Shown piece after piece: positions 12,934 to 62,900 of a stretch of DNA of 64,000 nt. The notes under the pieces were generated by a model. That model was not told the origin of the DNA. It worked only from the letters and a program-made list of their open reading frames with translations, and ran no database searches. The translations under genes and the position numbers were made by a program. Each line of letters opens with the position of its first letter. The stretch's first letter is position 1. Source of the DNA: Gyrodactylus bullatarudis (taxonomy: Eukaryota > Platyhelminthes > Monogenea > Gyrodactylidea > Gyrodactylidae); the NCBI GenBank assembly GCA_012064415.1, contig SSNU01000052.1, positions 123,176 through 187,175 on the forward strand, in the 5' to 3' direction.

Positions 12934-15129
12934 TAGTGTAATTGGTTAATTAATAAATTTATCTGTCAAATTTTTTCGGAAAAAATTGAAAGGTCCCAAA
13001 CTAAAAACAATTGTTATCTCTAGCACTAAAACAAAAAACATTTGTTAAAATTTTCAGCTTGAAAATAGATTAACTAGAAATTAAATTAGAAATTCTAATT
13101 TAGAATTCAAGACTTGTTAGCTTAGCAGTAAATTTAATCATTAATCCATATGTCTACTTTATAGTAATCACCAGATTTTGAATGTTTAAGTATTTAGAAC
13201 AACAATGTTGGTCTATTATTGTATAATAAAAATATTTGGGCACTCAGAATTCCAAGGTACAATTTTAATTTAAAATTAAAAAATATCACCTGAATTCACA
13301 ATGTGAATTATCCTGATAAAGATAAATTGATTCATCATTCAAATCTTTTCCACTGATACTATGAAAAATAAAAACCAAACAAGAAAATTGATCGTTACCC
13401 TAGTGATGAAAGCTCTCGAGTAAACATTTTTTTAAATAATAACACTCCAAATATTACACTCCTTTCATCCTAATCACAGAAAGAGATTTGTAATACATCT
13501 CAGTTTTGCTTTAGCAAACAAAACAAAGTGTTTGTACACTAACATTTTTCTAATTTGAAAAATTTCAAGTGACTGAACGATTCTTTCAAGACACACTTTT
13601 CACAATTGATTAATTATTGATTGTCAAACTGAATAATTCAAGGGAATATAACTGATCTAAATCATGAATTTTTTGTTTTTATTTGCTCTTCTCATCAGAT
13701 GAGTAGTGGTACTTACATTTTGTCCCATTTCAGTTTTGTTTATTTATGGAGGGAGGCAAAAATCTTTTGGCTTCCATAAAATATTAAAGAGAAGAAGATG
13801 TGAACATTGGAGCATTTCTCATAAATCACTTCGTTTCTCTCTTCAATTACATTTAGATTATCTACTTGAAAGTAGCTCACATTCTAGAACTAAATCAAAT
13901 ACAGAATAAACCTTGAGAAATTTATGCTTTATTTAATCCAAAACTCGAATTTGGTTAAGATCTTTAGAAATTTTAGATCATGAAGTTATGAGAAAATGCG
14001 CCTATTCTCCACTTTCCAAATATTAGGTTCGAATTCGCCTAAAGAGGTTCACAGAAATTCGTCATTATTGTAGGAACTCGAACTTATGGAATTCTTTGAT
14101 TATCGCGAAGTTTTATTATTTCTTGAAAATCGCCAGTTTCTTTCAATCTTTATGGTCAAAATCGAATTCTTCATCTAATGATGATCAATCACATCAGCAT
14201 TAGATAGCTTTAAAATTTTGAGGTCAGACGTTGAAAAAAGTTAAAATTTTGCGCATTTTTTAAATTCAAAAAACAGATTGAATATTCTTCAGCTCATAAA
14301 CTCATTTCAAAAAGTAAATATTTTCCTGATTATCCGGAGAATTTATTATATCAATTTGCTGTATTATTCAGGTACTTTATTTTGAATAAAAAATCTACAA
14401 ATACAATTAGCCAGTGAGTAATCTGATCATAGACTCTAGACACTTTATTCTTCCTGATTCCATAAATTATAGTCTAATGTCGAAAAAATTAAAAAGAACA
14501 AGAAGAACCAACTATTTTTAAATGAACCTACTAGGCTTGATCAGATGATCAAGGAAGATTTAAAAAAAAATAAATTGAAAATTCTTAAGCAATTAAGTAG
14601 AAACGTCGTGGGCATTATAATCCTAAGGATGTACTATGCACATTGTTGAAGAAGAAACTATACTCTCCACTTACAAACTACAAGATACTTCATGAATAAT
14701 TAATTTGAAATGAAAAATAATACATAAATTTGCCTGATCAGTCTAAAATATAGGGGGAAAACCCCCAATACTCTCTGTTGCATTCTAATGATGAGTCCAC
14801 CATTACACACTTTATGATGGATTATATTATGTATGTACATTGTATATGATTAATTTGTGTACATCTCTGTGGGGTTGTAATCATACGATGACTTTTTCTT
14901 CACTGAGCAATGCCCAGAATCATCAGCTAATGAAAATATTTCCATGGTTTGTTGATAAATTTTTTCCCAAATGTAATCCATTCATTTATTTACTTTAGCA
15001 TTAATAGAATATGAAAGCGCTTGGAGTAGTCATATACTGTACACTGTATACTCATTTTTGATTAACCAAATCAGTTATAAATTATGTATTCTACTTATAT
15101 CTGTAATCTTTTAAAATCTTACAAATCTA
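12934..15129. other. Intergenic, no gene recognised
   Basis: AT-rich with short open frames only. A plus-strand frame at 13706-13909 has no family resemblance. I see no long inverted repeats or known element termini. Confidence 0.5.
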
Positions 15130-15861
15130 AGAAATATTTTTAAGAAAAAGACTGATAATGGCAAATATCTCCATTATGTCAGTTTTAGTCCAGTTTCACA
15201 TAAAGTTGGCTTAGTAATTGGTCTAGGGAAGAGAATACGAAGGATTGCTAGCCCGGAAGAAATACCAAAAGAAATAGAGACGGCGAAGTCTTGTTTAATG
15301 GAAAATGGTTATCCAGCCAAATTTGTGGACAAGTTCATCAATCAACCTTTGGTTAGAGATGAGGTTGTCAATACAGAGGAAGGCGAGAAAACAAAAGTTT
15401 TCATGAAACTTAACTTCAAAGGTGATGGTTTTAGTAATGATGTTAGGAGAAGACTCATTAATCTCATCGATCAACATTATGACAATATACAATTGAAAAT
15501 TTTATTCAAAACTCAGAGATTTTTCAGTTTAATCCATAAGGATTTACTTGACCCTCAAGAAAAGACTCTATTGATTTACAAGTTTCAGTGTGACTGTGGT
15601 GCTTCGTATATAGGACATACTATTAGGAAGTTGTCAAATAGATCTTATGATCATCTCAATTAAGATACCGCGGTGATCAGACATCTAAAACAGGAAAACC
15701 ATGCTGCTTCAATTTCTAATTTTTCCATCTTATACAAAAACCCAGGGGATGGCAGCACAGATGTGTGGGTGAAGGAGAAATTTTTCATCAACATGTATAA
15801 ACCTAATTTGTGTTTTCAAAAGAATTATTCATTTAATCTTCAACTACCATGGCCTATGTGA
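15130..15861 (+). pseudogene. Penelope-like retroelement relic: RT C-terminus and GIY-YIG endonuclease
   Basis: One reading frame runs from about 15130 to a TGA at 15861, broken by a TAA at 15661-15663. The first part, KTDNGKYLHYVSFSP then NGYPAKFVDKFI, resembles the segment after the reverse transcriptase core of Penelope-like elements. The second part is a GIY-YIG (Uri-type) nuclease: CDCGASYIGHTIRKLSNR, then IRHLKQENHAAS, a VKEKFFI helix and the terminal MYKPNLCF. The Cys pair before YIG is usual in this family. The RT catalytic core is absent, and no pseudo-LTR could be seen beside it, so this is a 5'-truncated dead copy. It matters because Penelope-like elements are known carriers of hammerhead ribozymes, one of which lies 5 kb away. 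Confidence 0.8.
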
Positions 15862-18800: not shown

Positions 18801-20959
18801 TAATCATCGAGGAATTCAAATATGCAATCGCCTGAACTCTATCTGATAAAACTACAAAGATAACCTGTAGTTTAAAAATGGGTCATTTTTTGATCGATTA
18901 CTTCTGAACCAAAATTAATAAAAGATTGGATGCGGGTCGTGAAAAAAAATTCTCAGGGCCACTTCTAGGCCAATAGTATGTGATGATCACTAGGAGCATG
19001 CATTTTCCTATGTTGTAACGTCACTAATAGTTGAAATCTTTCTAGTGACACTTTTTATGCATGATTCAACAATCCGCTTGTCTAAAGTTTTCTGGAAAAT
19101 AATGAATGTAAAGAGTGAATTATTCATAAATCCGGTGTGTAAGGATTCTACCTGGAGTTATTTTGGGCAATTTTCTTTGCAATTATTTGTTTACCTTTCC
19201 CATTAAAATCTTCTTGGTTTGTAAATTTATTATGCTATCTCTCAGCAATCACTTTTCTAGACTAGAAAATGCTTTTTTGAAATTCATTTTTACCGATTTA
19301 ATGTGAGTCGAAGCTAAAAATTTATCTACTCCAGCTATTCTCGATGAATTCATGATTTTTTCATCAAAGTCTTAACATTTTTTGATATGAAAATCTTTAA
19401 ACAACCGTCAATTTGAACTGATCTCGGATCACCAAAATTCATTAATTTTCAAGCAGTAAAATTGATCGAAAAATAGGAACTAGCCTTTTGCAAGATGATC
19501 ACAAATTGTCAAATTTATCGAGAATAGCTTCACTATTTGAATTTGAGAAAAAATCTATTTAATGGAACGACATCAATGTACATGTATTCTCTAAGTGTTT
19601 CGTGAGAGTCAGGTAGCTCTTGAGCCTCAGTCAATCAAATTAATTTGAAAAACATTAATTAATTTCGTATATTACCTAATAAAATAAAATGATTTATCAA
19701 ATCTAATATCATTAAATTATGAATTAGAAAAATAAATTCAGGTTGCTTCCTCTTTTTTTCAGAATTTACTTGGAAACTATAATCACCCTCGTTCTCATTC
19801 AGATAAATTACTGCAAACTATTAGGAGGCAGGTGTTCCATAGATTATCTGTTTTTGGTTACGACCTTGGATCCAGTAATTTATTAAACCTGAACCTGTTC
19901 TCGAATAATGTGACTAGCTAGTTGTGACTATAGTTGTTAGATTCATACTCTCTAAAATAAAATTTATACAAATCTGAAAAGCATTAGTTGGTATAACTCA
20001 ACAAGACCTTAAACGTTTATCCTAATAGTTACTTGAACTTATTCTATAGGTTTTTCTAAAATAATTATAATCCAAAGTAAATTAATGAATATAGCTAATA
20101 AGTAAGCGTAACTAATTTTGGAATTAGAATTTCTCTACTCAGAAATGTTGGAGGGCTACCAAAAGCTAATTATTTTTATATCGTTTTTTTTTATTTTTAA
20201 AGAAAGTATAATAATTTTTCTGGAGGATCCAAAGAAATTCACAAAAAGTCTACATTTTTGAAATTAAAAGAAATTTAATTTCAGTAAATTATTTTGTTAC
20301 ATTAGACTCTTTTGTAGCAATTTAATTTATATAATTTTCTAGGATAATTTCTCTTAACGGGGGAAAAAAGTGAGATTATGTTGATAGATTAGAATAATAC
20401 AGAAAAATACATTTGTTTCCTGATGGAAATTTCCAGTCTTGAAAATTTCCCGTCATTTCTGGATGTAATAATTTTGTTTATTTGTGGACAGAATTTGTTT
20501 GTCACTTAAGCCCAATTCTAGGACTAAAAGAATGATTGAAAAAGCTGCACAAATAAAAAAATAAGAAATTAGACTCACTTTTACGATATTTTGAAAAGAT
20601 CAGTATTCAAGACAAGTTTTAAATTTCGAAGTAGCGCCAAATTCCCATTTTTTGGATTTTGGGTTGGAAATTTTCGTTTATTACAAAATAAGAGAGGAAT
20701 CAAAAGTTGATTTTTATGATCAAGATTAGACGAAAAGTAAGCACATGTAGAAATTACAGTGTTTTTAGACAATTAACCTACTAGTAAAGTGTGGTCACTA
20801 GTAATTACTATATCCATATGAACTCTAACTTGATGGAGATTGTCTTCTCACACCTAGATGTTAGAAATTCGGATAAGCAAGTGTTAATTCCATAAGAGAG
20901 TCGAATAATATTCAACTCACGTTGGCAGATGTAGACGCGTTTCGTCCAACGTTGAAGAC

Positions 20960-20976
20960 CTGGGTTCGAATCCTGG
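20960..20976 (+). promoter_or_regulatory. tRNA-like T arm with RNA polymerase III box B
   Basis: CTGGG-TTCGAAT-CCTGG folds as a 17-nt T arm with two G-U pairs. It contains GGTTCGAATCC, an exact box B consensus. No good box A, anticodon loop or complete cloverleaf precedes it, so it is a tRNA-derived piece and not a tRNA gene. It overlaps the 5' edge of the hammerhead. Confidence 0.65.
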
Positions 20977-21028
20977 CTATGGTGTACTGACGAGTCCTAT
21001 TAAGGACGAAACGCGTCTACATCTGCCA
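20974..21028 (+). ncRNA. Type I hammerhead ribozyme motif
   Basis: All invariant core parts are present in order: CTGACGA at 20987-20993, stem II GTCC/GGAC with a TATTAA loop (20994-21007), and GAAA at 21008-21011. A minimal stem III made from the self-complementary ACGCGT follows (overlapping the last A of GAAA), with cleavage predicted after the C of GTC (21017). Stem I pairs GGTGTA with TACATC (one G-U), then an internal loop, then TGGC with GCCA. Internal-loop stem I and a tiny stem III are typical of hammerheads from animal mobile elements, which may act as dimers through the palindromic stem III. Activity is inferred from structure only. The long flanking palindrome could compete with this fold. 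Confidence 0.8.
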
Positions 21029-23638
21029 ACGTGAGTTGAATATTATTTGACTCTCTTATGGAATTGACACTTGCTTATCCGAATTTCTAACATCTAGGTG
21101 TGCGAAGACAATCTCCATCAAGTTAGAGTTCATATGGATATAGTAATTACCAGTGACCACACTTTGCTAGTAGGTTAATTGTTTAGACGAAAATTTTTTT
21201 AAAGTCACCCCGTCCTCTTGTGAGTTTTGATTTTTTGATCATTTTCTTTATTATTTTGATGTTTCAAGATTCCTAAAAAATTGTAAATTTATCTAAAATT
21301 TTATGGTGATAATCGGTTTCTTTTTCAAATCGTGGTCCTAATCACTCTCTCACTTTAAAATCTGCAAAAATTTTCTTCATATCGTGAAAATGGGCCTCAA
21401 GATAAAATTAGATTTTTTGATGAAAAAATTGAGAATTTTGTTAAAGTAATAAATTCCCATCTAGGTTAGATCAGTCGAGAATTACATAACAAAAAGATAC
21501 ATTACAAAAATCTTAAATGCAGTATTGACATTTCCTGTATTTTTCACAAGACCGTGATGTACAGATGAAAACCGTATTCGAGGATTCTTATCGTCTTACT
21601 TTGTGAAAAATTCTTATCAGGTTCAAATCAATTGTTAAAAATTTAATTCTGATCTGAACAATGTGGTTCTATGCTCCCCAAACCTGTATTTATTTCATGC
21701 TCTGTTGAATTCAAATATGCAATCGACTGAACCTGGGTAAGGTTCGTCCGGGAACATACAACCGGAAAGTTGCCAAATTTAGATTAAAACAAAATTGCAA
21801 AATTTTTTATCAAGAGTTGTTTATATCTCTATAACGTTGCGAAAAATTGCATGTTAGTGCTGCTATCAAATGATGCGCTTCTCAGAAGAATACTTTTTCT
21901 TTTATTTTTACTATTTCATTTAAAATTTCTCTGTGAGGTTTTTAAACAATAACTAGCCATATCGAAATTCGAATGAGAATCAAGGGAGAAAGATTTCGCT
22001 CTAAAATCTATTTTCTCTTCTTATTAATAATTGACACAGAGATATCCCCAAAAAATGATAATCCACAATAGATGGGATATCTTTCTTTCGACATTTGCCA
22101 AAGTAATAAATAAATAAAGAAAAAAGAAAATTTTTCCTCAATAAAAATTAATTCTGTAACTATATATCAAAACTGTATATATATATATCTTCTTTTATCT
22201 CTCTTAATTTCTTCTTTGGAATAAACGGATATTAAATCAAGATCATCCATTAATTATCAAGATGACCGTTACTTCATTTTTATTTTCTCAATTATCTATC
22301 TGGCAATCATTTCTTTCATCTATCGCCAAAACTATTTACAATCGATTGTACGTTTTCCACTTTAACCCTTTGATTTGTAAGCATACCGAAATATTTACTT
22401 TGATCCCGAATCTGAATTAAATTTTGAAAACTGACTTACTACTCAAAAGATGATAATAATAGAAATTAAATAGTTCAAAGTAATCCACAATAAAATCGAC
22501 AGCTTAACACCTAGAATGAACTGTATTTGCAAATTTAATTAAATTAAAAATTTTCTCACCAAAGTCCTTCAAGGTCGGAAAATTTTTCTTAATTTCTAAT
22601 GTATCAATATATAATTTGATCAATAATATTTTTATGGACTAGGCTATGGGTATTGGGCAAGTAAGAAGAGTAGACGTATTCAGCTGGGACTTTATTAAGT
22701 TTGGCGAACCATAATACCTGGCTAATACCATGGTTAACAAGATAAACAACAGATTAATAATACAAATCACAAAGGTCTTTTAAAGGATATGTTTGGCGTA
22801 TATTCAAAAACCACAAAAAATATACTTTATATTCTACTACCGATGAATTACACTTAAACAGAAGAATGAATAATTTAATACAGTATGAAGATATACGAAA
22901 TTCTCAATTTTTTCATCAAGAAATCGAATTTGATCAAGATTTTTTGGAATCTAAATCCTGAGGCCCACTTTACACGATATAGAGAAAAAAGATTTTGAGA
23001 AAATCAATTTTTGAGGAAATCTTGGCATATTTCAAATGACGGTTTAGCGCTATATTCCCATTTTCTGAACTTTGCTGTTTTAAAGTGAGATAGGTATCAA
23101 AAGTTGATTTTTAAGATCACAATAAGATATAGAAATCAACTCAGCTAAATCTGATTTTGTGTGAAAATTGAATTTTAATTTTCTGATCATTTTCTATAAT
23201 TTATATAAATTTGGATTCTTTCAAAATCGTTTTTTTTTCATTTCCTCAAGATCTTATAGATTCCATAAAGTCTTGATCAAACTCGACTTGTTGATAAAAG
23301 AATTTCGAAAGAAAATCTGAAGTTCCCATATTCACATTATTAACTCCGAGTATAGATCATCGATTTGATTCGTCAAGTAAATCCATAGAGCTCATCTATA
23401 TCTGAATATACAAGAAGAAGAATTTTTGATTGTACTTCTTATAACATATTTAAACTTAAGTTGGACCGAACACCCTAAAATCGTTAATATATCCCTTATA
23501 AGTAGTTATGTAATATAAAAATATTATATAATTAAATAAGATTATTAATACTAAGATTAAATACTCACAAAAATTAATTTATTGACAACATGAATTTACA
23601 TCAAACTTTTTAGAACTTGTTCAGCAATAATTCCTGGA

Positions 23639-24097: not shown

Positions 24098-24205
24098 AGA
24101 AATTCGGATAAGCAAGTGTTAATTCCATAAGAGAGTCGAATAATATTCAACTCACGTTGGCAGATGTAGACGCGTTTCGTCCAACGTTGAAGACCTGGGT
24201 TCGAA
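24098..24205. mobile_element. Truncated copy of the hammerhead element
   Basis: The 108 bases match 20863-20970 with no difference that I can find. They cover half of the left arm and run into the T loop, stopping at TTCGAA. The CTGACGA core and the right arm are missing, so this copy cannot form the ribozyme. Its left edge lies one base from the terminus of a MITE. The two loci are only 3.1 kb apart. Confidence 0.8.
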
Positions 24206-33984: not shown

Positions 33985-34304
33985 CCTTTTTAAATCTTGA
34001 TTAAATTGTTGTTCTATAAACTTATGAATTAGATTTTTTAATACCTTTAATTTTAATAGTTTTACCTTCTTAATGGTGTATGATTTTCTCTCTCCCAAAA
34101 TTAATTAGCGTCTTTTATCACAGGTTGAAGTTTTTACTTGGAAACTATTATTGCTGAGTGTAATTAGGACTAATTATCTTCAATGAAAATTACCCAAGAA
34201 ACGAGTTAACTTATGAGCATAATTATAATCTTGTAATAATTCATATTTCGAAGGAATCAACCATCTCTGATTGGTTAGCTCGGAGTTATCTCTAATTATA
34301 TTAC

Positions 34305-34320
34305 AGGTCGTATACGACCT
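34305..34320. repeat. 16-bp palindrome, copy next to the transposase start
   Basis: AGGTCGTATACGACCT again, ending two bases before the ATG at 34322. It follows TTACAG, so it could also sit just after a 3' splice site. Its place suggests control of transposase expression by a palindrome-binding protein; this is inference. Confidence 0.65.
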
Positions 34321-34321
34321 A

Positions 34322-35938
34322 ATGGTAACCAGAAATATGGAGAGCGAGTTAAATGTACGTCACACAAGGAACGGAAAAATTTACTCACTAGTGGTAATTC
34401 CTGATGCAAATCAATCAGAAGAAGAGCTAGAAGAAGAAGCAAATACTCACCAGGAGCAAATAATTGAATCCTCTAGTGACGATGAAATTGATTTAGTTCC
34501 GAATTCCGTTAGGTCGTTAGATATGAGAGATACAAGACAGCATCCCAAGATAGTTCTTGACTTCACAAGCCAGAAAGAGAAACAAATATCCCTGAAAAAA
34601 CCTTTAGAATATTTCTATACTTATTTCAGCGATGATATGATATCATTGATGGTTTACCACTCAAATATATATGCAACTCAACAGAATCGGATTCTTCGGG
34701 CCAACATATCTGAGGCAAAAAAATATCTTGGAATCTTACTGCGAATGGGAATAATCAAACTTCCAAGATTTATGATGTATTGGAGCGATGAAACAAGAAT
34801 CGAATCAGTTGCTCGAGTTATGCCAAGAAATCGCTTTTTTGAATGGCAAAGAAATATCCATTTTTGTGATAACCATCAACCTGATCCAGATGACCGGTTT
34901 TTCAAAATTCGGGAATTCTCTAATATTTTTCATTCAAATTGTAGATCTGCTGCTTCACAAGGACAAACCCATTCTGTAGATGAGCAAATCATACCTTTTA
35001 AAGGCAGATCAAGACTGAAACAATATCTGCCAGCTAAGCCAACAAAGTGGGGCATTAAAGTATTTTCTCGAAATGATATGGATGGTCTCATGCATGAGTT
35101 TATCATCTATGATGGAAAGTGTCCAATAGTAGAAGAATCGTGTGGAATGGTATCTGGAGATTTTGTTTTAAGTGTGTGTAAGCAAATTCCTAACAACTCT
35201 AATCATATTATCTGCTTCGACAACTATTTCAACAGTCCAAGCCTTCAAAAGGCATTGTTAAAACGAGGAATTCATAGTTCGGGAACATTGAGATCTAATC
35301 GACTTAAAGCATTAGAAAAAAGTCTTCTTACAGAAAAGGAACTTAAATCGAAAGGTCGTGGCTCGTATGACCTATTATATAGCCAAAGTGACAAAATATT
35401 TATTATGAGGTGGTTTGACAACAGAGCTGTTACCTTAACCTCAACTTTTGCTTCGAGTGAACCTATCTCCATTGCCAAAAGATGGAATCGTAAAGAAAAA
35501 AAAATCGAGCAAGTACCAGTACCATATATTGTCTCAAATTATAACAAATCTATGGGCGCTGTCGATTTATTTGACTCATACCAATCCCTTTACAGAATTG
35601 ATCATAGATCAAAAAATTGGTATTTTGCTGTTTTCAAATGGATTCTTAATAGCTCAATCATAAACGCATGGCTTCTTTACAAAAGAGACATGATTAAATG
35701 TCAAAATGAAAAGCCAATGGATCTTTTAAGTTTTCAGTTAAGCGTAGCAGAATCCCTGATCAGAGAAACTTGTGAACCTACTCCGAAGAGACGAAGAATT
35801 AGTATACCTGAAGAATCCCCTGATGTTCGAAGAAAATGTTCTTTAGAAAATATTGAAGAAATTCTGAATCTCAGCACAGGCAAATCAGACCTGGAGATTC
35901 ATAAACCAATAAGAGTTGTCAAGGACAAAGATCGATGA
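34322..35938 (+). CDS. piggyBac transposase, truncated before its Cys-rich tail
   Basis: This DDE-type transposase cuts and pastes DNA at TTAA. The frame is intact for 538 residues from the Met after the 16-bp palindrome; the upstream in-frame Met at 34271 would translate the palindrome itself. An acidic N-terminus (EEELEEE) precedes DDE_Tnp_1_7. The three catalytic aspartates are in THSVDEQ (~residue 220), ICFDNYF (~300) and MGAVDLFD (~415). A nuclear-signal-like PKRRR lies near the end. The frame stops at TGA (35936-35938). The same frame continues beyond it with CFTCKK, CETCK and further Cys/His, the zinc-binding tail usual in this family, to about 36114. The copy therefore lost its DNA-binding tail through one nonsense codon. 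Confidence 0.9.
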   Translation: MVTRNMESELNVRHTRNGKIYSLVVIPDANQSEEELEEEANTHQEQIIESSSDDEIDLVPNSVRSLDMRDTRQHPKIVLDFTSQKEKQISLKKPLEYFYTYFSDDMISLMVYHSNIYATQQNRILRANISEAKKYLGILLRMGIIKLPRFMMYWSDETRIESVARVMPRNRFFEWQRNIHFCDNHQPDPDDRFFKIREFSNIFHSNCRSAASQGQTHSVDEQIIPFKGRSRLKQYLPAKPTKWGIKVFSRNDMDGLMHEFIIYDGKCPIVEESCGMVSGDFVLSVCKQIPNNSNHIICFDNYFNSPSLQKALLKRGIHSSGTLRSNRLKALEKSLLTEKELKSKGRGSYDLLYSQSDKIFIMRWFDNRAVTLTSTFASSEPISIAKRWNRKEKKIEQVPVPYIVSNYNKSMGAVDLFDSYQSLYRIDHRSKNWYFAVFKWILNSSIINAWLLYKRDMIKCQNEKPMDLLSFQLSVAESLIRETCEPTPKRRRISIPEESPDVRRKCSLENIEEILNLSTGKSDLEIHKPIRVVKDKDR

Positions 35939-50912: not shown

Positions 50913-52496
50913 TGTTGTAGCTAATTCGTACATAAGTATGAATTAGCAGGGATAGCTCTGCTAATTCGTACTGAAAGGGCAGAGGGGAATACATCGCATA
51001 TACCAAATGTATGCTGAATAACTTTATAAATTTCATAAGCAAATGCCATGAGAGACTTGGACACGCTGGTCGTGTTTTAACCAAAAAAGAAGTTGATAGT
51101 TTCTACAAAAAACATCACTCAAGCACAGATATCATTGTTCAAATCTCTTTGTCCTCAATGTATCAAGAATCAAAGTTCAAAAAGAAAAGGAATAGTTACA
51201 CGTCCAATGGTGAGCAACTCATATAACTCCCGGGTACAAGTAGACCTTATTGACTATCAGTCGTCTCCCGATGAAGAATTCAAATTTTTAATGGTCTATC
51301 AAGATCATTTCGCGAAATATGTCCTACTTAGACCTCTGAAGAATAAATTGGCTGAAACAATATCGGAAGAAATCAAAATTATTTTAGAGATTTTGGCAAC
51401 CCGAAAATTCTTCATACTGATAACGGAAGAGAATTTAAAAATTCTACCCTTCTCAAGATGTTGGAGAGTTTTCCTGGAACTAAAATGGTACATCCCAGAC
51501 CGAGACATAGTCAAAGTCAAGGATCGGTTGAAAAAGCGAATCAAGATGTTGAAAACATGATTCGTAAATGGATGGCTGATCATAATTCAACTCATTGGGC
51601 TGAAGCGACTCCATTTGTTCAGATGCAAAAAATAGGAGATACCATCGTACAATAGGAATGTCTCCTTATAGGGCTTTGTTTGGCGTGGAGTTTACCTCAG
51701 AGGAAGATAAAGTTCAAGGTAAGCTTTAAATGTTAAATTTGAATTAGTTTATTGAATGATAAATGTATTTATTTTTAGACGATCTTAGTGATCTTGATAC
51801 AAGCTTTTTGGTTTTACCAGAAGATGATATGTCTGAAAGTTTGAAGCAAATGTCTGAATTGAAGAAGAATATTTTATTTTCTACAACAAAATGTGCTCAG
51901 AAAATGCTCGCTGATAAAGCTCCAGTAATTCCAGAAGTAGGAGATAACGTCGTTATTCCAATTCCTAAGATTGATAGGTCAAAGGTAGATTATCGTTGTC
52001 TTCTAGGTATCATAAGAGAAGTTGACGACGGAAAATGTAATGTGGAAACAGAAAACGGAATTTTGAAAGGTCGTCTGAATTCTGGCCAATTTAAAATCAT
52101 CGACCAAAAAGTTCTTGATCCACAGCCGATGGTTCAAGACGAAGAGCTCAGTATCCGAGCTGCAAGTGCGAAGCAATCGAGATCCGGAGGTCAAGGTTTC
52201 ACAAAATGTAACTGCATCCTATCCTGCTCATCGAACAAGTGTAAATGTCGGAAATTGAATTTACTTTGCAATTCAAAATGTCATCCAGGCAGAAATTGCA
52301 ACAAAAAAACCTATGATTCACAGTTTTTAATTAAAAATTATAATTAAACTATAATTCTTTAATCGCACTTGTTAAATAAGATAATAAAAGCATTCTAAAA
52401 AGGTGTCTCAGTCTTTTCAGTACGAATTAGCAGAGCTATCCCTGCTAATTCATACTTAAGTACGAATTAGCAGTTCAGTACGAATTAGCTACAACA
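50913..52496 (+). mobile_element. Ginger DNA transposon, full length
   Basis: The element runs from TGTTGTAG to CTACAACA with TATA on both sides (50909-50912 and 52497-52500). TGTNR ends and a 4-bp duplication are diagnostic of Ginger elements, which use a Gypsy-like integrase. The inverted ends are ~65-85 bp; the right end has an extra ~21 nt that repeats the 12-mer GCTAATTCGTAC. A 10-bp-arm hairpin, GAATTAGCAG...CTGCTAATTC, lies in both ends. Confidence 0.9.
51011..52347 (+). pseudogene. Ginger integrase (KRBA2-like), frameshifted
   Basis: The pieces, in order, are an integrase zinc-binding start (CHERLGHAGR then LCPQCIKN), the rve core with VDLIDYQSSP, FLMVYQDHFAKYVLLRPLKN, HTDNGREF and SQGSVEKANQDVENMIRKW, and GMSPYRALFGVEF. 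A 60-nt intron (51719-51778) and a second part ending in a CXC-like Cys cluster (CNCILSCSSNKCKCR...CNSKCHPG) follow. The catalytic D, D and E are all recognisable. Frame changes near 51130, 51390 and 51637 split the integrase, so this copy is inactive. Similar proteins are annotated as KRAB-A domain-containing protein 2-like in many arthropods. Confidence 0.85.
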
Positions 52497-59900: not shown

Positions 59901-62900
59901 TCTCTTTCTAACTATGTTTAACTTTATTTTGGCCAAGATTCTCAAATTTTTTCTCTTCTCATAAATAAATTGTGTCTAAGAATCTGAGTTTTAAGATAAA
60001 GATACCTCATCATATATTATCATTGGCTGATCTAAAATCTCTGCAATCTGATCAGTTAAATATTTGAAATATTGGTTTGGACAATGATTTTCACTAGCTT
60101 TAAAGAGTGTTTGATAAAAAACTCGTTATTATTTTTATGCAAAAAGGTTTCATAAAAAATATAAATTCAAAGGCAAAAAGAAAAAGAACGTAAAATCTCA
60201 CCGTATAGTCAGGGTGAAAGGAGCTGGTGATGCTTCAGATCCATCTCTAACCAAGAAGGATCCATCCTCAAAGTTGAGCATGAGATAATTTATCTTTTCC
60301 CTTGAAACATTGCCCCAGTACCATTCGTACTGCTCAATATCACGTTGGTTATTTTCGAGGACTTCTTCATCTGTCAGACCAGCATACTCATTAATAGCCA
60401 TTGAAGCTACAGAAATAGAAAGGTTTTTTAAATCAACTAAAGCGTAGAAATTAAATTATGAGAAAAAGAAACCCTACACCGGCATAAATGATTCTTTTTT
60501 CTTTTAAAGCTAACTTTTTAGAAAATAAAATTCGATCCCGAGTCTTCAACGTTGTGAGACAATGTTTCCAAAATTTTTATACGACATCATGGGCTAATTT
60601 TTCTGACTTTCTTATGGAATTGATACTTCGTTTCGGTGTGAAAAGTAAGGAAAAAATTGAAATTTTAATTGGTCTGCAACCAGGAATAAAAAGTAAATGA
60701 TGGGAAAATTAAACTTATTTAAAGTTTCAGCTGAAAATAGGCTATTTTATTATTCTATTACAAGTTTATCTGAAGAAATACTCTTTCGTATTGCGTCAAT
60801 GGTTGAGTTTCGAAAAAAATTATTCTTGTATTTACGAATACGAATACTTATATTCAGATAATTTTAGCCTTACAAACCATTTAATGGGCTTCAGTTAAAA
60901 AGAACAAGTGCCTACTTGAATCAGGAAAAATGGTAATCACATTATTCAACAGGCTATTAAAATATTTTTTTGTCTATTTGCAACAAAATTCAACTTTGAT
61001 TCAAATTTATACTTGATAAAATTATTCAAAATGAGAAAAAATTCAAGACGATAGTAGGATAAAACCCAAAATCAAACCAGCCACTCCCTGCTCCCTTCAT
61101 AACTCGCAGTAGTTTAACTGAATGACAAAAAATTAGGGACTTTCCCAACATAGATTCAATGAAAAAGAATGGTTAGTTTTCCTACCCTGATTATACGCTT
61201 CAGAATATATGAGGATGGAAAAAATATTCATGGCCCAACTTATGAGTAAGCAGTCATTGATCTTTTAATCGATAATTTTTCTAGGAAGTTTAGCAAGGAT
61301 TGAAAAAAACCGTGCATATAACTAAATTGTTATCGAATGATGATTTTCAATTATCACTAACCAATTTCTTTTGCAATTACTTCAATTTTACGATCAATCT
61401 CTTCAAGTTCATGTAGATTGAAGGGTTTCCAGACTTTGACAATTTGAATGAGTAAGTCAGACTGTTTCCTCCACAAGTTTAGAGTGTTTCGGGTGTATTT
61501 CAGGTCAGGTTTGAAGAAAAATAAATGAAAAATGTTGCCGATATGCTCAATGTTGTTCATGTCGGAGATATGTTCGAGGGTTTTCTCATCAATATTGCCA
61601 TAATCTGATGTCTTCATCGTTTGGAGGATTTCAAAAGTTGTCTTTTTCAGGTTGCATTGATAAATAAAGATTTGGCTGAGATGATCTAGCACTTGAGTGA
61701 TCAGCATTTTTTGGATTGGCGTCATGCCGTTCAAAATAACTAGCAACTGCATACGATCAAAACTTTCCAGAAGGCAAAATCTGTTCTCTACATTAATTAA
61801 AATTATATTATTACTCAAAAGTTAATAATAAGAAATACTATTCGAAAAATAATTTTCACTGAAATTCCAGTCTTAAATTTCTTTCAATTTGACTGCATTT
61901 ATATGATTTGACAAAGAACCCTTCATATCTCGGGCATACTCATCAGTGTGATACATGCTACTACCAACCCATTAACTTTAAACACTAGAAACTGAGCATG
62001 CATTTTCATTGGCCGATTTGATTGAACTAAGCTAGGATATGCAACAGCTTTGAAGTTGAGAATCTATGATTATTAAGAAAACCTCGATTTTTTCATCAAA
62101 AATTCGAATAAGTAAAAGATTTTAGGAATCCTACACATTTTGCCCACTTTTACGATTTGAAGAAGAAAAATCTGAAATAAACTTATGAAAATATGGTCAT
62201 TTTTCAAATCTTGATTTGGCGCAAAAATCTCATTTTTTCGAACTTTGAACTCAAGATTTTTATTGATTTGAAAGTGGGAGTGTGGCCAAAAGATTTTTTT
62301 AGAATCCCGATAAGAGAAAGGAATCAAATAGGTTTAATCTTTTTTTATGCATAGCCTCATTATCGTTTGGGAGCTGAATTTCGATTTTTTGATTATTTGC
62401 ACTACTTGAAAATTAATGAAATTTCTATGAATGAATTTCTATGGTGAATCTTTCGAAAATTTATAGGCGATATTTGGCTTTCTTTTCTAATTCTGTTTCT
62501 ATAAAATATCTTTTGACTACACTCCCACTTTCAAATCAATAAAAATTTTGAGTTCAAAATTCGAAAAAAGTGGGATTTTGGCGCCAAATCAAGATTTAAA
62601 AAATGACCATATCTTTTATAAAAATTATTTTTTTCAGATTTTTTTTCTTCAAATGGTAAAAGTGGGCAGCATGAGTAGGATTCCAGAAAATCTTAACAAA
62701 TTCGAATTCTTAATAAAAATATCGAGATCTCTGTAAAAATCATAAATTCCCAACTTCATATCAACCAACTTTAGATTTAATCTATGCAATCAACTGTATT
62801 TTTCAATTTCTTCAAAAATCAAAATGTCAAACTCACTTTTATCATCAATAAAATCATAAAATTTTGGTATAAATCTAGTTGGAATGACAGTTTCTGGAAG

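What the first reader, a model, noticed from the sequence alone, without database searches (positions are those of the whole stretch)
20769..21182. Hammerhead ribozyme at the centre of a 414-bp palindrome with a tRNA-like T arm
The sequence shows every invariant hammerhead position, three workable stems and a palindromic stem III (ACGCGT), next to an exact box B. Hammerheads fused to tRNA-like pol III elements are known in schistosome repeats, and hammerheads are known in Penelope-like elements and retrozymes. A head-to-head palindromic form with 179-nt arms in an arthropod-like intron looks unusual. A transcript could fold either as a long dsRNA hairpin or as an active ribozyme, which would couple self-cleavage to RNA silencing or to circle formation; that link is inference.
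Basis: partly seen in the sequence, partly recalled or inferred. Interest (0 to 1): 0.9.

Follow-up and report, generated by a model that had tools for sequence, protein, structure and literature searches.

The report
Head-to-head double copy of ribozyme retroelement
A small flatworm jumping element that carries a self-cutting RNA motif sits here as two copies joined head to head, and comparison with about a hundred related places suggests that such palindromes form during insertion, when both ends of the cut DNA are extended on the element's RNA.

Summary
The palindrome, hammerhead and exact box B are real. They are one insertion (20737-21182) flanked by an 11-bp target duplication: a head-to-head dimer of a non-coding element with a ~369-nt unit (tRNA-like head, type I hammerhead, body, 34-nt tail). 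The 77-Mb genome, flatworm by its proteins, holds 521 matches to a body 30-mer. In 79 loci not chosen for being palindromic, 51 of 79 clusters are head-to-head. In 33 of the 51 a 10-16 bp duplication lies at both ends; 27 of the 33 pair a full-tail end with an end about 34 nt shorter, none pairs two full tails (random pairing: mean 14, at most 26). Partner arms share rare variants above chance (19 against 0.3). This is the insertion form of Penelope-like elements (PLEs), whose enzyme extends both DNA strands from two adjacent RNA sites (PMC11167929). Best reading: a PLE-mobilised, tRNA-headed retrozyme whose RNA is copied from both ends of the cut, against the published self-priming account. 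The arthropod setting is wrong; the dsRNA/ribozyme switch is untested.

The parts
20726..20736 (.). left copy of the 11-bp target site duplication TTAGACGAAAA
   Evidence: read; the script found the same 11-mer but placed it 13 nt away, because its left alignment stopped early in the variant tail, so it did not count the window as a clean duplication
20737..20947 (-). left copy (minus strand), monomer positions about m306 to m93: 3' tail and body, truncated inside the hammerhead; outer end of full-tail type (A)
20737..20763 (-). PLE-like tail (about m278-m306), present on this arm only
20937..20960 (+). head-to-head junction GCGTTTCGTCC|AACGTTGAAGACC
   Evidence: three places in the genome at up to 3 mismatches (here, 24172-24195, and C157)
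20948..21182 (+). right copy (plus strand), from about m37 (tRNA anticodon arm) to the inner start site (B); no tail
20963..20973 (+). box B GGTTCGAATCC in a tRNA-like T arm (stem 20960-20964 / 20972-20976)
   Evidence: own reading; heads with box A in other copies
20981..21023 (+). type I hammerhead ribozyme, predicted cut after 21017
21183..21193 (.). right copy of the target site duplication TTAGACGAAAA
24098..24205 (+). 108-bp copy of the middle of the same dimer, with the junction but neither outer end; no duplication found

Best explanation
The locus is one retrotransposition product of a non-coding, tRNA-headed hammerhead retrozyme of a flatworm, mobilised in trans by a Penelope-like element. 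The tRNA-like head starts the RNA. The PLE enzyme cuts the two strands of the target about 12 bp apart and extends BOTH 3' ends on the element's RNA, one from start site A (end of the tail, about m311) and one from start site B (about m277, 34 nt further in). The two cDNAs, each running towards the RNA's 5' end and stopping at a variable point, are joined at their heads. This gives a head-to-head inverted dimer with one tail, an asymmetric centre and a short target duplication. Shown here: the dimers, the duplications, the one-tail rule, and sharing of rare variants between arms in part of the dimers. Inferred: the enzyme (PLE), the cutting and joining steps, the promoter, and that one RNA molecule (or RNA of one source locus) usually serves both ends. 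The window's own dimer, or its C157 sister, may be a re-copy of an older dimer.
For: Repetition. In the 79 loci that hold the 100 listed zero-mismatch body sites: 51 of 79 clusters head-to-head (6 clusters at edges left out); 33 of 51 with a 10-16 bp duplication within 5 nt of both ends; ends A/B in 27 of 33, B/mid 5, B/B 1, A/A 0; random pairing gives A/B mean 14.1, max 26 in 10,000. Seven further head-to-head pairs: 5 with a duplication (9-14 nt), of which 3 A/B, 2 mid/B, 0 A/A. Rare variants shared by partner arms: 47 against mean 0.9 in 40 of 45 dimers; in the 33 above 19 against mean 0.34, max 2, in 28 of 33 tested. 5' ends pile up at the tRNA start: 22 of 176 at m3-17. PLE RT motif: 557 candidates, 150 scored, 150 matched; an open 854-aa frame hits RVT_1 and flatworm RT proteins. 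L029 joins the element's head directly to a PLE RT piece. A published PLE enzyme cuts and extends both strands and starts at two adjacent internal sites bracketing the tail (PMC11167929); PLE copies optionally carry a tail on one of two inverted pLTRs (PMC3846280).
Against: 18 of 51 head-to-head clusters have no adjacent duplication, and 28 of 79 clusters are not head-to-head, only 3 of these with a duplication. Among all 51 there are 3 B/B, 1 A/A and 9 with some other end. Only 10 of 28 tested dimers share a rare variant; 78 rare variants are unshared. Sharing could also come from gene conversion between arms or from two RNAs of one source. The junction seen here recurs at C157 with another duplication, so this dimer was copied as a whole at least once. 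No match to the element's tail was found in seven stretches around PLE copies, but none certainly holds a full PLE start region, so the partner is not pinned. In vitro the PLE enzyme showed no difference in start site between strands, which does not by itself predict the A/B rule.
Confidence: 0.75

Rival explanations
1. Two RNAs: the two cut ends are extended on two separate RNA molecules held by an asymmetric enzyme dimer that uses site A on one strand and B on the other.
For: The published PLE protein is predicted to form a dimer. The junction of L029 with PLE sequence needs two RNAs. 18 of 28 tested dimers share no rare variant.
Against: Shared rare variants above chance need both RNAs to come from one source locus. 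Independent use of two RNAs would give A/A pairs; none among 33.
Confidence: 0.35
2. Fold-back: the palindrome arises when a cDNA or an antisense RNA primes on itself (the account offered for PLE palindromes in PMC3846280).
For: Head-to-head palindromes and shared variants between arms would follow.
Against: Copying one arm from the other should give equal outer ends (own reasoning); here they differ by the tail in 27 of 33 and A/A is not seen among the 33. The two arms are truncated unequally, and duplications flank the whole dimer.
Confidence: 0.07
3. The palindrome is a fixed mobile unit (a MITE-like inverted-repeat element or a dimeric SINE subfamily) that moves as a whole.
For: The window's junction recurs in three places, one of them with its own duplication.
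Against: Truncation points differ between dimers; duplications vary from 10 to 16 bp; the window's junction has 3 matches against 521 body matches.
Confidence: 0.08
4. The palindrome is kept because its transcript folds into long dsRNA or an active ribozyme and regulates silencing.
For: A transcript across the locus could form a long hairpin; the hammerhead core is intact in this copy.
Against: Insertion alone explains the structure, which recurs at many loci; 19 of 76 aligned stretches spanning the hammerhead lack the core pattern. No expression data were available.
Confidence: 0.05

Closest known systems
Schistosome Sm-alpha / Sj-alpha SINE-like repeats
   Same: SINE-like, hammerhead, flatworm host; S. 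mansoni tRNA-Gln-like SINEs are reported as similar to Sm-alpha (PMC2770079, passages)
   Different: More than 10,000 Sm-alpha copies are quoted there, here hundreds. No Sm-alpha sequence was held for comparison; here the head looks Glu(CUC)-like (own reading). The passages seen do not speak of head-to-head dimers or PLE-type insertion
Metazoan non-LTR retrozymes
   Same: type I hammerhead, unit of 170-400 nt (here about 369), direct repeats in some copies, PLE suspected as partner (PMC7229834: abstract, passages, section on mussels, discussion)
   Different: tRNA-like head; inverted dimers are the commonest form in the sample, while the words inverted and head-to-head do not occur in that paper; 5' ends point to a primary transcript, not to the cleaved RNA
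Penelope-like elements with inverted pLTRs (A. vaga Pen families, Poseidon of Anolis)
   Same: head-to-head inverted terminal copies, short target duplications (8-10 bp in the cases quoted, none in some), a tail of about 31 nt optionally on one of them (PMC3846280 passages); hammerhead in the pLTR region and internal start sites (PMC11167929 parts 1-2 of 4)
   Different: no protein gene; this insertion is 446 bp; duplications here are 10-16 bp
LINE-1 twin-primed inversions
   Same: both DNA ends prime on RNA (recalled; only a search listing seen)
   Different: there the inverted part is a different segment of the RNA (recalled); here both arms copy the same segment and both outer ends are 3' ends of the element

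Membership tests
Type I hammerhead ribozyme | core CUGANGA...GAAA...NUH with three stems | tested here: met
   core pattern present in 57 of 76 aligned stretches spanning it
Type I hammerhead ribozyme | Rfam RF00163 gathering score 34 | tested here: not met
   24.2 bits here; other copies 21.6-32.6 bits
Type I hammerhead ribozyme | self-cleavage | not testable with these tools
   needs a bench assay
Metazoan retrozyme | 170-400 nt unit with type I hammerhead | tested here: met
   unit about 369 nt; same-strand neighbours 369 apart at C148
Metazoan retrozyme | tandem direct copies | tested here: inconclusive
   partial direct repeats in some copies (for example L069, L028, L099); not the main form
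Metazoan retrozyme | linear and circular RNAs ending at the cut site | not testable with these tools
   no RNA data; insertion 5' ends not enriched at the cut site (2 of 176)
tRNA-derived hammerhead SINE (Sm-alpha kind) | box A and box B in a tRNA-like head | tested here: met
   heads (TGGCCTAGTGG, GGTTCGAATCC; consensus boxes recalled); no TTTT in my 369-nt reference. Against: ARAGORN calls no tRNA in 14 loci, and the window copy lacks box A
tRNA-derived hammerhead SINE (Sm-alpha kind) | sequence descent from Sm-alpha | not tested
   no Sm-alpha sequence held
Penelope-like element | RT plus GIY-YIG gene | tested here: not met
   the insertion between its duplications is only 446 bp
Penelope-like element | insertion form: head-to-head ends, one tail, short target duplication | tested here: met
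   with the exceptions counted there
DNA transposon / MITE | equal inverted ends and fixed duplication length | tested here: not met
   unequal ends, duplications 10-16 bp

The most novel reading that the evidence does not exclude
PLE-type enzymes copy one RNA twice in a single insertion: the leading reverse transcriptase starts at site B, the trailing one at site A about 34 nt behind it on the same RNA, each from one side of the cut, so that a palindrome with exactly one tail is the normal product. Inverted terminal copies of PLEs and of retrozymes would then be by-products of normal chemistry rather than of self-priming. In line with this, the B arm reaches further towards the RNA 5' end in 19 of 27 A/B dimers of the less biased set (A arm in 7, equal 1); in all 35 A/B dimers it is 21 against 13, equal 1, which is weaker.
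Probability: 0.45. Interest if true: 0.8.

Novelty: new variant of a known kind. Interest (0 to 1): 0.62.

Why it matters
How PLEs insert, and why they sit as inverted copies, is left open in the two PLE papers seen (PMC3846280, PMC11167929). A short, abundant, well-preserved non-coding relative gives many natural insertion products with which to test models. It also offers what a 2020 review says is missing for metazoan retrozymes, a motif that points to the autonomous partner (PMC7761336, passage): two end sites 34 nt apart and one-tailed head-to-head dimers point to PLEs.

Tried and rejected
Constant sum of the two truncation points (about 130) in the first copies: dropped as selection by the 420-bp query; the second sample is spread (compared by eye). 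MITE or DNA transposon: rejected on unequal ends and variable duplications. Far partner for solo copies: of 35 solos, one search found a duplication of 10 nt or more in 5 (control 1.8%): L033 and L040 at the element, L071 and L074 inside nested clusters, and L036, which is a 167-bp direct repeat of the target (98.8%); L079 has 9 nt at the element; the rest stay unexplained. Tail hairpin at the start sites: not better than shuffles (z 0.26 and 0.30). Shared tail with PLEs: no match better than chance in L107-L109 and none in L108, L110-L113; a weak test, as no full PLE start region was certain. Pfam on short PLE pieces and on window ORFs 15115-15663 and 51081-51557: nothing relevant; the 854-aa frame does hit RVT_1. 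Solved structures and homologues with the 229-aa piece: nothing useful (the piece is too short to reach full-length PLEs). MicroRNA-family matches are palindromes scored as hairpins, below gathering.

Limits of the counts: one search lists 100 of 521 matches (zero mismatches, contigs up to C365); a dimer has two chances to be listed, so the head-to-head share is somewhat inflated; 6 clusters at locus edges were left out. L009-L047 of the wider set came in by likeness to the window's palindrome (40 of 919 candidates scored). Ends are BLAST ends, so they are good to a few nt. End classes (A from m298, mid 285-297, B 255-284) were set after seeing the first data. The 7 follow-up pairs were chosen as head-to-head pairs from the 100 places listed. 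One search used 45 dimers picked (L074 left out as a chance match of simple sequence), including the window, and tested 40; three of the 45 besides the window (L031, L068, L080) fail the stricter test. One search used 30 of the 33 (L009, L071, L097 left out by oversight: 14 shared against 0.28 in 25 tested); one search repeats it with all 33 (28 tested).
Full report
WHAT IS THERE. Two arms of 182 nt (20766-20947, 21004-21185) are 97% complementary, 56 nt apart. The middle and the start of the right arm hold a T arm with an exact box B and a type I hammerhead core. The hammerhead scores 24.2 bits against RF00163, E 0.0031 in 1001 bases, below the gathering score of 34; its pattern occurs once in the window and in none of 100 shuffles.

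IT IS ONE COPY OF A FAMILY. The window lies in a 77.3-Mb assembly of 471 contigs. With the 420-bp palindrome as query, 40 of 919 candidates were scored and gave 111 matches. A 30-mer of the body has 521 matches and a 30-mer of the hammerhead 335, up to 3 mismatches, with none for the reversed control. A splicing-factor protein of the window is closest to that of Cichlidogyrus casuarinus, a monogenean (84%), then to those of flukes and tapeworms, so the host is a flatworm, probably a monogenean (inference), not an arthropod.

THE UNIT. Other copies show a fuller head: TTCTGGCCTAGTGGTTAGAAGCGTTGCCTCACAACGTTGAAGACCTGGGTTCGAATCCTGGC (with small differences between copies), with a box A, an anticodon loop that reads CUC (Glu; own reading) and box B. 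ARAGORN calls no tRNA in 14 loci; the 3' half of an acceptor stem is missing (own reading). Then follow the hammerhead, about 170 nt of body and a 34-nt tail. Head-to-tail copies are joined by about 58 nt, unit about 369 nt. My 369-nt reference has no TTTT, which would suit pol III.

THE PALINDROME IS AN INVERTED DIMER. In the window the left copy (minus strand, 20737-20947) runs from the tail to inside the hammerhead; the right copy (20948-21182) runs from the anticodon arm to a point that lacks the tail. TTAGACGAAAA lies directly outside both ends (20726-20736, 21183-21193). The script found the 11-mer but did not count the window as a clean duplication, because its left alignment stopped early in a variant tail; the reading is by eye.

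SAMPLE. The 79 loci that hold the 100 listed zero-mismatch body sites were read. They give 79 clusters, 6 more being left out at locus edges: 51 head-to-head, 28 not. Of the 51, 33 have a duplication within 5 nt of both ends (10-16 bp, mean 12.5); of the 28, 3 do. In the wider set longest flank matches of 8 nt or more occur in 49 of 103 clusters against 2.2% of re-paired flanks. In the listing inverted neighbours within 600 bp are all head-to-head (by eye); a few nested clusters hold short pieces in the other order (L072 and L091; L116).

ONE-TAIL RULE. Outer ends fall at m298 or beyond (A, full tail) or at m255-284 (B), with a few between. Of the 33 duplication-bearing dimers 27 are A/B, 5 B/mid, 1 B/B and none A/A; random pairing of the same ends gives 14.1 A/B on average and at most 26 in 10,000. 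All 51 head-to-head clusters: 33 A/B, 5 B/mid, 3 B/B, 1 A/A, 9 with another end. Seven further pairs: 5 with a duplication (3 A/B, 2 mid/B), and without one L116 (one A and one B end) and L118 (B/B).

ONE TEMPLATE OR ONE SOURCE. Variants rare elsewhere (6% or less) are shared by the two arms of a dimer 47 times in 40 dimers; re-paired arms share 0.9 on average, at most 5 in 200 trials; 90 are unshared. In the 33 dimers above (28 with enough overlap) 19 are shared against 0.34, at most 2 in 300 trials; 78 are unshared, and 10 of the 28 carry at least one shared variant. L047 is a clear case: both arms carry five rare changes, one at an invariant hammerhead position and one beside it. So in a part of the dimers the arms come from one RNA or one source locus; the rest are uninformative or differ. 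Later gene conversion between arms could add to the sharing.

JUNCTIONS AND 5' ENDS. In 30 dimers the inner ends, as BLAST gives them, overlap by 0-4 nt in 16 and leave gaps of 1-55 nt in 14. 5' ends of 176 aligned stretches are spread, with a pile-up at the tRNA start (22 at m3-17; about 8.5 expected from the density over m20-250, my estimate from the histogram) and none at the hammerhead cut (2 at m104-110); a second peak at m-60 to -51 (12) is the edge of my reference. The template therefore looks like the primary transcript. This fits the PLE study in which unprocessed RNA was the dominant substrate (PMC11167929), and does not support cleaved linear RNA as the usual template; circles are not excluded.

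RE-COPYING. The window's junction has 3 matches in the genome: here, at 24172-24195, and at C157. The C157 copy is 97% identical and has its own duplication, AAATTCTTCAT, so one dimer was copied as a whole at least once; the 24.1-kb piece lacks both outer ends.

PENELOPE LINK. A 51-aa RT piece from L029 has 557 candidates, 150 scored, 150 matched. One 854-aa open frame hits RVT_1 and, among others, flatworm RT proteins; its GIY-YIG part is by motif (own reading). Stretches around PLE copies hold hammerhead-like motifs, and one has an inverted pair (L110 769-979; motifs by eye). L029 joins the retrozyme head directly to PLE RT sequence in the head-to-head sense; its other end lies beyond the contig, so no duplication can be checked. 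L052 has an endonuclease-like piece in the same sense about 0.27 kb from its 5' side, not at a direct junction. Published: a PLE protein cuts and extends both strands and starts at two adjacent sites bracketing the tail (parts 1-2 of 4 of PMC11167929); inverted pLTRs, a tail optionally on one of them and duplications, explained there by self-priming on an antisense template with other routes left open (passages and discussion of PMC3846280). Fold-back models should give equal outer ends (own reasoning), which the one-tail rule contradicts. Two-ended extension predicts the dimers, their orientation and the duplication; extension of one RNA from two start sites also predicts the A/B pairing.

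WHAT IS IN PRINT. In the listings (open-licence PMC papers only) and the passages opened I saw no account of head-to-head hammerhead retrozymes or of the A/B rule. The papers on Sm-alpha (Ferbeyre 1998) and on PLE hammerheads (Cervera 2014) were not held, so absence from print is not shown.

VERDICT. The element is a new variant of a known kind (tRNA-headed hammerhead retrozyme). Its collective insertion pattern is the interesting part, because it bears on an open question about PLE insertion.

Noticed in passing
window 15115-15750: Open frame ending in a GIY-YIG-like stretch (own reading), similar to pieces in L021, L009 and others: probably a decayed PLE endonuclease. Pfam gives no relevant hit.
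   Followed up: partly
window 34271-35938: 555-aa open frame with DDE_Tnp_1_7 (PF13843, E 5.3e-68): a piggyBac-type transposase (name recalled).
   Followed up: no
window 51081-52347: Two frames that look like a retroviral-type integrase and a cysteine-rich part (own reading); no relevant Pfam match for the first.
   Followed up: no
window 60530-60628: Short inverted pieces of the same element (m19-60 and m137-161), probably an old head-to-head copy.
   Followed up: no
L036: A single copy flanked by a 167-bp direct repeat of the target (98.8%): a far larger duplication than the usual 12 bp.
   Followed up: partly
L110 769-979: A self-complementary stretch (73% over 214 nt) with a hammerhead-like motif near a PLE copy.
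   Followed up: no
solo copies, for example L038, L044, L063, L066, L073: Most of 35 single-orientation clusters show no target duplication within about 700 bp; some may be joined to other RNAs, as L029 is to PLE sequence.
   Followed up: partly
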